This document shows, piece after piece, positions 17,755-23,632 of a DNA stretch of 23,632 nucleotides. The translations under genes and the position numbers were made by a program. This DNA comes from a virus: positions 1 through 23,632 of the IMG/VR virus record IMGVR_UViG_3300015024_000083. One strand, written 5' to 3'. The notes beneath the pieces are model-generated. The model did no database searches and was not told where the DNA came from. It worked only from the letters and a program-made list of their open reading frames with translations. Each line of letters starts with the position of its first letter. Position 1 is the first letter of the stretch.

Positions 17755-18690
17755 CTATTTCTTACCTGCAAGAGATAGTGCTAGTCGCTTGGCGACTGCC
17801 TGTTCACGCTTTGTAGTGCTGATTCGATTCTTAGATTCATCAGTGTGATGTTTTCCTAAGAATGGACGATTGGATCCTTCGGCCATATTGCGATGGCGTT
17901 GCCTCATTGCCTCGCTTAGTTTTGCCCGTGTCTCGTCGGTGATCCTCGACGGGTTCGCGCGCTTAGTCGCGCTGATCTTCGCCTTCTGCTCAGCACTCAT
18001 AGTCTTGCCGTAGTTCGGATTCTTCTCACCGGCCTGCACTCCGATGTGCGCTGCGCTCAACTTTGCGCGCAATTCAGGAGATGCCTTCAGACCTCGTGTC
18101 GGATTGCCTGCCCCAAGCATCCGCTCACGCAGCATTTGCTTGTATGCCTCGGAGTGTTTCGGCTTGCCGCGGTTCGCAGCGCCGATCTTCGCGGCGTGAT
18201 CCGGGGTCCTGGTCTTCTTTGGCACACACAGCGCAGCGCGATGTTCTTCCGACTTCGGGATCCCCTTACCGACCGACTTGCCCATCTTCGCCGCCGATAT
18301 CTTCGCGCCATGCTCAGGCGTCCTTACGAGCCCACGCAGTCCGTCGCCACCGTCTGTCCCATTCGTCAGCGGCCATCCAGCGGCGCGACCGTGTGCAATC
18401 CAACGCATCTCCGCAGCATCGAGTGCGCCCCACTCGATCGCCGGATCGTAGTGATTCAGTAGCGGTGGGACGGCTTCGTCGGGATCTGCGATGTGCTGCA
18501 ACACCTCAACCCCGGGTACGAGCCCGGCATCGAAGATGCGACGCACGGCAAGTCCTTTCAGCGTCTGCTCCTTGCGAGCGAACGGCGTGAAGTGCTCCTT
18601 GCAGCGCTCCAGCCCTCGCGACGACTGCCCCACATAGAACCGCTCACCCGTACGTGGGTCCACGAGCGCGTAGATCAGAAACAGGCTCAC
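17755..18690 (-). CDS. GIY-YIG homing endonuclease with NUMOD3 repeats
   Basis: 311 residues from the GTG at 18690-18688, which overlaps the TGA of the RHH gene (GTGA). Residues 4-21 are the GIY-YIG core (FLIYALVDP and FYVGQS, Leu replacing the first Gly). Arg29 lies in the catalytic-Arg helix (GLERCKEHF). Glu94 in AEMRWIAHG and Asn110 in LTNGTDGGDG match the conserved metal-binding Glu and Asn. The C-terminal about 190 residues contain repeated NUMOD3-type DNA-binding motifs (TPEHGAKISAAKMGK, SPELRAKLSAAHIG, SAEQKAKISATKRAN, TDETRAKLSEAMRQ, TDESKNRISTTKRE). Catalytic residues look intact. It is free-standing between scaffold and capsid genes, and probably nicks or cuts the cognate intergenic site in related phages to spread itself. 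Confidence 0.92.
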   Translation of the reverse strand: MSLFLIYALVDPRTGERFYVGQSSRGLERCKEHFTPFARKEQTLKGLAVRRIFDAGLVPGVEVLQHIADPDEAVPPLLNHYDPAIEWGALDAAEMRWIAHGRAAGWPLTNGTDGGDGLRGLVRTPEHGAKISAAKMGKSVGKGIPKSEEHRAALCVPKKTRTPDHAAKIGAANRGKPKHSEAYKQMLRERMLGAGNPTRGLKASPELRAKLSAAHIGVQAGEKNPNYGKTMSAEQKAKISATKRANPSRITDETRAKLSEAMRQRHRNMAEGSNRPFLGKHHTDESKNRISTTKREQAVAKRLALSLAGKK

Positions 18691-18839
18691 TTCGCAACTG
18701 CCGCGTTGCAGCAGTCGCGCACCCACTGCGCCATTGATCGCCTGGACGTCAGGGCTGCTTCTTGCCACTCCTTGGATTCGGCCGGCGAGATTCGGAGCTG
18801 GAACACAACGGTCTTCAGGAAGCGCTTCGGTTTGGCCAC
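18687..18839 (-). CDS. Small ribbon-helix-helix (Arc-type) protein, coupled to GIY-YIG gene
   Basis: 50 residues from the GTG at 18839-18837, the only start after an in-frame TAG. The sequence has a short basic N-terminus (VAKPKRFLK), a strand TVVFQLRIS, a first helix PAESKEWQEAALTS, a Ser/Arg turn and a second helix MAQWVRDCCNAAVA. This is the ribbon-helix-helix layout of Arc/MetJ-type repressors and mobilisation-protein RHH domains. The gene has no clear ribosome site and ends inside the GIY-YIG start codon (4-nt GTGA overlap). In this family the strand pair contacts the DNA major groove as a dimer. It probably autoregulates the endonuclease cassette via the palindrome just upstream; this is inference. 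Chance coding is unlikely given the match and coupling. Confidence 0.7.
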   Translation of the reverse strand: MAKPKRFLKTVVFQLRISPAESKEWQEAALTSRRSMAQWVRDCCNAAVAK

Positions 18840-22758: not shown

Positions 22759-23000
22759 GGTTCGATCGTCCTAGGCGTCACGGGCCAGTGCTTCACGTAG
22801 TACGTGTCGCCATTCCATCGCTCACGTGGTGCTTCATCGATGGCCTTGGCCTTGGCGGCTTCGGCTGACTCCTGCGTAATGTGGATCGAGATCATTTTCT
22901 CGCCCGGACAACACACGTTTCCGTCGTCGCAGCTCAAGACCCAGACGCCGTTGCCGACCGCGCACGGATTCCCACAGTCGACACAGTTATAGTGGCTCAT
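22755..23000 (-). CDS. Small zinc-ribbon-like cysteine-rich protein
   Basis: 81 residues. The frame is open from 23021, but the ATG at 23000-22998 overlaps the terminase TGA exactly (ATGA) and has GAGGG about 5 nt upstream, so it is chosen. The N-terminal 32 residues carry six cysteines: CVDCGNPC, LSCDDG and VCCPG, a pattern that could bind one or two zinc ions. The remainder is a helix (ITQESAEAAKAKAIDEAPRE) and a short aromatic tail (WNGDTYYVKHWPV). The two halves suggest a small nucleic-acid- or protein-binding module. Function unknown; coupled to the terminase, so perhaps involved in packaging. Confidence 0.75.
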   Translation of the reverse strand: MSHYNCVDCGNPCAVGNGVWVLSCDDGNVCCPGEKMISIHITQESAEAAKAKAIDEAPRERWNGDTYYVKHWPVTPRTIEP

Positions 23001-23632
23001 GCCATCCCTCTGCGTCGCCACGGTTGGTCGAATTCCTCGTCTAGATCTTCCTCGAGCTCGGCGGCCTGGCGAGCGAACGCCGCGGGTGTGCCCGCGACGG
23101 GCTTCGCATCCTCTGGCCGTGATCGATAGGCATACGACGCACGATGCGAATACAGGCTTGCGTCGCAGTTGTGCACGAGGATTCCGTTGGCGAAGTACTC
23201 GTGCTCGCCGTCAACCGATAGGTTGTACACGGAAGCCACGCGCCCGGTTCGTTCGACGCGTGCGACACGATCGAGAACAACAGCCGAGCTTGCGATATCG
23301 GTTGACGCGAAACGCTTTGCTGCACTCTGGACAGATCCTGTCCTCGTCGTCGATTCCGCTGTCTCGCCTGCGTTTGGCGTGACATCGCATGCTGCATACC
23401 TCCGCGCCGGAGACCTTGCTTTTGAATCCTGATTCGCAGACGACGCACTTGCAGTCATGGAATGCTCGATTGGCCATGACTTCGATTCCATGAGTGACAT
23501 GCCAAGCTCGTCCCTTCGGTGACCGATGCCATGCCTTTGCGGCTGGCACTGCGAATTTGACAACGTTGCGTGTTGCTTCAGCGACTCGCGCCGGTTTGAG
23601 CATGTGCTCTCTGAGATGTTCAGATCCGTCAA
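22997..23632 (-). CDS. terL: Large terminase C-terminus plus intein C-terminal splice region (partial)
   Basis: The right edge cuts the gene. In this frame the intein C-terminal blocks are clear: VARVERTGRVASVYNLSV, then DGEHEYFANGILVHN. They end in the penultimate His and terminal Asn, with Cys as the +1 residue (TGC at 23167-23165). The 56-residue C-extein starts CDASLYSHRASYAYR; the Asp after Cys and the DAxxY pattern fit the last catalytic Asp of the terminase nuclease. The tail is acidic (ELEEDLDEEFDQPWRRR). The gene precedes the portal, as terL usually does. Upstream of about 23290 this frame is low-complexity shadow; the real intein sequence is in the neighbouring frame (23630-23211), so a frame break is present. 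Splicing ability depends on that break. Confidence 0.72.
   Translation of the reverse strand: MTDLNISESTCSNRRESLKQHATLSNSQCQPQRHGIGHRRDELGMSLMESKSWPIEHSMTASASSANQDSKARSPARRYAACDVTPNAGETAESTTRTGSVQSAAKRFASTDIASSAVVLDRVARVERTGRVASVYNLSVDGEHEYFANGILVHNCDASLYSHRASYAYRSRPEDAKPVAGTPAAFARQAAELEEDLDEEFDQPWRRRGMA
23211..23630 (-). other. Cys-rich homing-endonuclease-type segment of the terminase intein (second frame)
   Basis: This frame is open from the right edge to a TGA at 23213-23211. It encodes HMLKPARVAEATRN, then AKAWHRSPKGRAWHVTHG, a WHxSPxGxxWHxxHG module I know from HNH-type homing endonucleases. Two zinc-knuckle units follow: CVVCESGFKSKV with VCSMRCHAKRRR, and CPECSKAFRVNRYRKLGCCS with RSC. 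An HNH nuclease core, if present, would lie beyond the edge. The frame runs past the sequence where the intein C-terminal blocks begin in the other frame, which is +1 relative to it. So endonuclease and splice domains are not continuous as read. A free-standing endonuclease inside a split intein is an alternative. Confidence 0.68.

What the first reader, a model, noticed from the sequence alone, without database searches (positions are those of the whole stretch)
23168..23632. Terminase intein is read in two frames: decayed, split or programmed?
The endonuclease-type zinc-knuckle region (frame ending at the TGA at 23211) and the intein C-terminal splice blocks (frame ending at 22997) are both clearly coding, but in different frames. 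Going from one to the other needs a +1 shift (or -2) somewhere around 23240-23290. Both frames are open through this zone, so the exact point cannot be read. The linker usually expected between the endonuclease domain and the last Hint strands is also very short. Four options remain: an assembly or sequencing indel, a decaying endonuclease, a programmed frameshift, or a split intein with a free-standing endonuclease gene between halves (an arrangement known for other phage genes). If real, the terminase depends on an unusual expression route.
Basis: partly seen in the sequence, partly recalled or inferred. Interest (0 to 1): 0.68.

Follow-up and report, generated by a model that had tools for sequence, protein, structure and literature searches.

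The report
Intein hiding an out-of-frame endonuclease gene
A self-splicing insert (intein) in a phage's DNA-packaging motor gene carries its homing endonuclease as a second gene written over it in a different reading frame, so what looked like a frameshift error is an unusual overlapping-gene layout shared by well over a hundred virus sequences.

Summary
The two frames are real, but nothing needs repair or a ribosomal shift. The terminase/intein frame (22997-23632, minus) has no stop across the whole endonuclease region, up to the contig end. The HNH endonuclease (23211-23630, minus) is a separate gene written over the intein's linker in the -1 frame.

Complete relatives show the layout: one terminase ORF runs N-extein, IntN, stop-free unconserved linker, IntC (HN|C), C-extein. 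Inside the linker lies an out-of-frame, ATG-started zinc-knuckle HNH nuclease. Over 54 non-redundant loci the host frame has 0 stops where 91 are expected, and substitutions fall on nuclease-frame wobble positions. AlphaFold gives a Hint fold with a disordered linker in one frame and a folded nuclease in the other.

A second group (HNH or DUF559 nucleases) uses the opposite frame, so the trick probably arose at least twice. Close relatives of this phage carry intein-free alleles at the same site. Some loci have the split form instead; the window fits the nested form, but its IntN lies off-contig. The nearest published case (ShiLan domain) lacks splicing domains; I found no published out-of-frame endonuclease inside a true intein in the searchable open library.

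The parts
22997..23167 (-). TerL C-extein (CDASLYSHR...), with stop codon at 22999-22997; Cys+1 is the first codon
   Evidence: 50-66% identical over 33-56 residues to intein-free TerL of L092-L096; ORF
23168..23272 (-). IntC: intein C-terminal splice blocks F and G (RVARVERTGRVASVYNLSVDGEHEYFANGILVHN)
   Evidence: TIGR01443 above cut-off; PF14890 E=1.5e-7; IntC profile
23273..23632 (-). Host-frame intein linker: stop-free, unconserved as protein, overprinted by the HEN; continues beyond the contig end
   Evidence: ORF open to contig end; family-wide absence of stops; linker unconserved and predicted disordered in L009
23211..23630 (-). 3' part of the nested HNH_3-type homing endonuclease gene, -1 frame relative to TerL; HNH core and start codon lie beyond the contig end
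   Evidence: 53% identity to L009 HEN, which matches PF13392 HNH_3 above cut-off; -1 offset shared by relatives
23382..23447 (-). First zinc knuckle of the HEN (CVVC...CSMRC)
   Evidence: Cysteines conserved in alignments A1 and A6
23265..23333 (-). Second zinc knuckle of the HEN (CPEC...CCSRSC)
   Evidence: Conserved in A1 and A6
23211..23213 (-). HEN stop codon TGA, formed across the host-frame Val-Asp codons (GTT GAC) of block F
   Evidence: Same column in 14 of 54 loci including TJE1 and L012; a second favoured column (VY|D/N) in 20

Best explanation
This is a cis-splicing intein in the phage terminase large subunit whose homing endonuclease is a separate gene written over the intein's central linker in the -1 reading frame. 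A ribosome that starts at TerL reads straight through N-extein, IntN, a stop-free linker, IntC and C-extein, and the intein then excises itself and joins the exteins (splicing is inferred from intact splice blocks). A second initiation event at the HEN's own start codon, just after IntN, reads the nuclease in the other frame and ends inside block F (inferred from relatives). The free nuclease cuts intein-free TerL alleles at the nuclease-domain site and repair copies the intein in (inferred). The linker's protein sequence is irrelevant; selection only keeps it free of stops (shown for the family).
For: Host frame open across the HEN. Same -1 nesting in 74 of 75 loci where both parts were found, with one continuous host ORF; the exception, L024, is nested in +1. 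Zero host-frame stops in 7,984 codons vs 91 expected under synonymous shuffling and 729 in the third frame. HEN codon position 3 carries the substitutions, and host-frame linker identity equals that of the unused frame. HEN has its own ATG in 45 of 50 loci. HEN-seeded sampling again gives nesting: 65 of 110 loci in the -1 frame with IntN and IntC in one ORF. AlphaFold: Hint ends confident, linker disordered; HEN mean pLDDT 95.6. Window HEN groups with nested L009. Intein-free TerL alleles in close relatives at the same site. GenBank phages TJE1 and Highwayman annotate one TerL ORF with the HEN out of frame inside it.
Against: The contig ends inside the HEN, so IntN, the HNH core and the HEN start are not seen in this phage. 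Openness over 120 codons in this GC-rich contig alone is not significant (P=0.15). Related loci include split forms. Shine-Dalgarno support for the nested start is weak (36% vs 21% background). No splicing, translation or cleavage data exist here.
Confidence: 0.88

Rival explanations
1. Split ('fractured') intein: TerL-N with IntN ends at a stop, the HEN is a free-standing gene, and IntC with TerL-C is translated from its own start and trans-splices.
For: About 14 loci with the same HEN family have this layout. The window's IntN is off-contig.
Against: Host frame is open for all HEN codons present. There is no start codon in the IntC frame between 23458 and 23239. Window IntC has the VYNLSVDGEHEYFANGILVHN form typical of nested inteins, while most split ones differ, e.g. 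VVNGGFVAHN or IANGIVVKN. The window HEN clusters with nested L009.
Confidence: 0.07
2. Programmed ribosomal frameshifting joins the two frames (-1 into the HEN, +1 back out).
For: The HEN is in the -1 frame, which is the usual direction of phage frameshifting. Four of about 50 relatives have a slippery heptamer in the entry zone.
Against: Slippery heptamers are not enriched: 6 of 1,520 sites vs 93 of 20,253 in control regions. HEN-frame stops lie just upstream of an ATG in most loci, leaving almost no room for entry. The host frame is open, so no return shift is needed.
Confidence: 0.02
3. Sequencing or assembly indel, or a decaying in-frame endonuclease.
For: Only one contig exists for this phage and no reads could be inspected.
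Against: The same offset recurs in over 100 contigs and two GenBank phage genomes. No strong match of this HEN family is in frame; the one in-frame HNH, L117, is only weakly related. The HEN is under purifying selection and host-frame stops are absent far beyond chance.
Confidence: 0.02

Closest known systems
ShiLan-domain type out-of-frame HNH insertion in actinobacteriophage DNA methylases (PMC11855218, 2025)
   Same: An HNH nuclease hidden in an alternative frame of an insertion that is stop-free in the host frame, with disjunct distribution and a disordered host-frame translation.
   Different: The paper found no intein splice domains and no evidence of splicing there. Here the insertion has full Hint splice blocks at both ends and sits mostly in terminases.
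Class 1 inteins with in-frame homing endonuclease (e.g. LAGLIDADG TerL inteins of mycobacteriophages BAKA and Bethlehem, PMC5050341)
   Same: Mobile intein in TerL with Cys1, TxxH, HN|C blocks and an associated homing endonuclease.
   Different: Those nucleases are in frame as a domain of the intein; here the nuclease is a separate overlapping gene.
Fractured genes with split inteins and a free-standing HEN (Dassa et al. 2009; gp41-1)
   Same: Same kind of parts, HEN between intein halves; host-frame intein is closest to gp41-1 by sequence and fold. Related loci have this form.
   Different: In the nested form one ORF spans both halves, so splicing would be in cis; the HEN overlaps the linker instead of separating two genes.
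I-HmuI HNH homing endonuclease (PDB 1U3E)
   Same: HNH nuclease homologous over profile positions 31-121 (E=1e-4).
   Different: I-HmuI is encoded by a group I intron (own knowledge); this family has two C-terminal zinc knuckles and mostly sits in inteins. A fold search gave no strong match.

Membership tests
Class 1 intein | C-terminal blocks F and G with HN|C | tested here: met
   23168-23272; TIGR01443 above cut-off
Class 1 intein | N-terminal Cys1 and block B TxxH in the same ORF | tested here: inconclusive
   Off-contig in the window; present in complete relatives
Class 1 intein | Protein splicing | not testable with these tools
   Needs expression; host-frame Hint fold predicted for L009
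HNH_3 (PF13392) zinc-knuckle homing endonuclease | HNH catalytic core | tested here: inconclusive
   Core lies past the contig end in the window; present in L009 (48.4 bits, cut-off 24.8)
HNH_3 (PF13392) zinc-knuckle homing endonuclease | C-terminal WH..WH and zinc knuckles of this family | tested here: met
   Conserved in alignments
ShiLan-type out-of-frame HNH insertion | HNH in an alternative frame, host frame stop-free | tested here: met
ShiLan-type out-of-frame HNH insertion | No intein splicing domains | tested here: not met
   Splice blocks present
Fractured gene / split intein | Stop between IntN and IntC in the host frame, with a start for the IntC gene | tested here: inconclusive
   No stop over the 120 HEN codons tested and no start between 23458 and 23239, but IntN is off-contig
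Programmed frameshift gene | Conserved slippery site in the entry zone | tested here: not met
   No enrichment across relatives; the window's own entry zone is off-contig

The most novel reading that the evidence does not exclude
Overprinting the homing endonuclease in an alternative frame of the intein linker is a widespread, repeatedly evolved strategy of tailed viruses (at least two origins, -1 and +1 frames; HNH_3, HNH and DUF559 nucleases; bacterial and archaeal hosts). It makes the nuclease an independently expressed protein and leaves the host protein with only a small splicing domain plus a disposable linker, and it interconverts with mini-inteins and split inteins.
Probability: 0.72. 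Interest if true: 0.87.

Novelty: new variant of a known kind. Interest (0 to 1): 0.8.

Why it matters
Inteins are usually described as carrying their endonuclease in frame as a domain, or as having lost it (mini-inteins). Here a large class of phage inteins has the nuclease hidden in another frame. It is a strong overlapping-gene case with a built-in control: the host frame is constrained only to avoid stops, while the nuclease frame is under normal protein selection. The two GenBank phages examined annotate only the host frame, so long phage inteins with no recognised endonuclease should be re-read in the other frames. It suggests a possible link between contiguous inteins and split ones such as gp41-1, and it raises a testable question: how is an internal gene in a packaging-motor mRNA translated?

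Tried and rejected
Programmed frameshift: no slippery-site enrichment. Sequencing error or decay: rejected by recurrence and selection. In-frame HEN: none among strong matches of this HEN family; L117 is a genuine in-frame HNH in a DNA-polymerase intein but only weakly related. Strong Shine-Dalgarno for the nested start: only mildly enriched. The 19-sequence HEN alignment was too diverse for a collection scan; a 5-sequence alignment worked. Highwayman vs Acinetobacter phage BP10 as an empty-site pair: TerLs too diverged, 27% identity. Foldseek of the HEN model: no strong PDB match, I-HmuI only at E=0.7. A (R)-mandelonitrile lyase hit in NCBIfam (20 bits, cut-off 140) dismissed as far below threshold. 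Inteins of B22, PhiXhv-12 and 13VV501A showed no comparable out-of-frame HEN on inspection. The careful tree did not finish; only the quick tree was used.

Full report
What was claimed.

Check. The window is a whole IMG/VR virus record of 23,632 bases. On the minus strand the nuclease frame runs from 23630 to 23211, ending in TGA. The splice-block frame runs from 23632 to 22997 and holds ...VYNLSVDGEHEYFANGILVHN|CDASLYSHR.... TIGR01443 (intein C-terminal splicing region) matches above its cut-off, and PF14890 matches just below its own. The nuclease part has the WH..WH motif and both zinc knuckles of its family. The offset is real. But the splice-block frame has no stop up to the contig end, so no shift is needed to read it through.

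Relatives. A scan of IMG/VR with IntC plus C-extein returned 80 loci, and a scan with the nuclease returned 7. Phage records gave Tetrasphaera phage TJE1 and Acinetobacter phage Highwayman, whose TerL is annotated as one ORF with no endonuclease annotated. In 75 loci, the window included, both an HEN and IntC were found. In 74 the HEN is in the -1 frame relative to the host, as in the window; L024 uses the other frame. In complete relatives the host ORF reads N-extein, Cys1 and block A, block B TxxH, a nonsense-looking linker, blocks F and G, HN|C and C-extein. Many sit at the TerL nuclease motif D[DH]x|CDAxxYA, which is the window's site; others sit elsewhere in TerL.

Statistics. For 54 non-redundant loci (80% identity) I shuffled HEN codons synonymously. 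The host frame has 0 stops in 7,984 codons where 91 are expected; the unused third frame has 729. For the window alone P(0)=0.15, so the inference rests on the family. In pairwise comparisons of related loci, substitutions in the HEN region fall on HEN codon positions 1/2/3 as 321/299/779. Amino-acid identity in the host frame there is about the same as in the unused frame. Upstream, the usual pattern holds in the host frame (538/416/1150). So the HEN protein is conserved and the linker protein is not, beyond being free of stops. Alignment A4 shows this directly: invariant residues occur only in IntN (C1, G13, G31, H63) and IntC.

Boundaries. In 45 of 50 loci an ATG lies in the HEN frame between the upstream stop and the nuclease domain. 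ATG is about four-fold enriched there (51 of 1,420 codons, against 140 of 16,917 in the same frame of N-exteins). The HEN stop falls in or near block F, in 34 of 54 loci at one of two columns (VY|D/N or V|E/D). The window uses the second, as do TJE1 and L012. Shine-Dalgarno matches are only mildly enriched (36% vs 21%), so how the nested gene is initiated is open. Slippery heptamers are not enriched.

Independent sampling by HEN. Scans seeded with the HEN alone gave 110 loci. Of these, 65 are nested in the -1 frame with IntN and IntC in one ORF, 2 are nested in the other frame (L110, L202), 14 are of split type, 4 have IntN only, 23 have no intein blocks found, and one gave no HEN match. Only L117, a weakly related HNH in a DNA-polymerase intein, is in frame. 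Nested cases include an archaeal contig (L097, Methanomethylophilaceae), and an archaeal virus, vir335, carries a HEN-less sibling intein. In a quick tree the window joins L009, a nested case, with SH-aLRT 93.

Second group. Inteins in L024, L065, L076, L077, L080, L216, L217, L218 and L219 carry HNH (PF01844) or DUF559/MTES_1575 nucleases out of frame in the opposite (+1) direction. Host-frame stops are again zero, where 2 to 16 are expected per locus. Different nuclease families and opposite frames imply at least two origins (inference).

Structure. AlphaFold of the L009 host-frame intein gives a confident Hint fold at both ends and pLDDT below 50 for most of residues 91-274. Foldseek matches gp41-1, DnaB and RecA inteins, as does sequence. 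The L009 HEN frame folds with mean pLDDT 95.6; the only solved relative found by sequence is I-HmuI.

Empty sites. Relatives of this phage (portals 63-78% identical) have intein-free TerL at the same position (L092-L095), and the +1 Cys is already present there. This fits recent mobility of the intein.

Mechanism, shown versus inferred. Shown: overlapping open frames, conservation pattern, splice blocks, predicted folds, empty alleles. Inferred: protein splicing, internal initiation at the nested ATG, nuclease activity and homing. For the window itself, IntN, the HNH core and the HEN start are off-contig and are inferred from relatives. The main rival is the split form. It is disfavoured by the open host frame, the absence of a start codon for IntC between 23458 and 23239, the IntC type and the tree position.

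Novelty. Out-of-frame HNH insertions were reported in 2025 for the ShiLan domain of phage methylases, explicitly without splicing domains (PMC11855218). TerL inteins with LAGLIDADG endonuclease domains are known in mycobacteriophages (PMC5050341). Fractured genes with split inteins are known (Dassa et al. 2009, seen here only as a citation in PMC3229294; content from own knowledge). Ten full-text searches of the open library found no description of an out-of-frame HEN inside a true intein. Subscription papers and preprints may hold one. I rate it a new variant of a known kind.

Noticed in passing
window 17755-18768 (-): A 337-aa ORF with NUMOD3 motifs (PF07460, E=3e-17), probably another free-standing homing endonuclease between structural genes.
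   Followed up: no
L065 5276-6067, also L211-L213: A DUF559/MTES_1575 (Vsr-like) nuclease lies out of frame (+1) inside an intein at a DEC|TKLKN-type site, apparently a helicase and not a terminase.
   Followed up: partly
L076, L077, L080, L216-L219: A separate group of terminase inteins with a classic HNH nuclease nested in the +1 frame; zero host-frame stops where 7 to 16 are expected.
   Followed up: yes
L146, L147, L149, L150, L151, L156, L162, L166, L169, L174, L181, L182, L185, L098: Apparent split (fractured) TerL genes: IntN gene ends at a stop, HEN free-standing, IntC starts a new ORF; same HEN family as the nested inteins.
   Followed up: partly
L207 (archaeal virus vir335) vs L002: Near-identical IntN and IntC, but the HEN-bearing linker is deleted in vir335, leaving a mini-intein: HEN loss caught in related alleles.
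   Followed up: partly
L226 (Acinetobacter phage BP10) 2195-2836: A free-standing HNH of the same family lies just upstream of the terminase genes in a phage whose annotated TerL is of intein-free length (469 aa).
   Followed up: no
L117 870-4520: A DNA-polymerase-like ORF with an intein that carries an HNH motif in frame, a contrast case to the nested layout.
   Followed up: no
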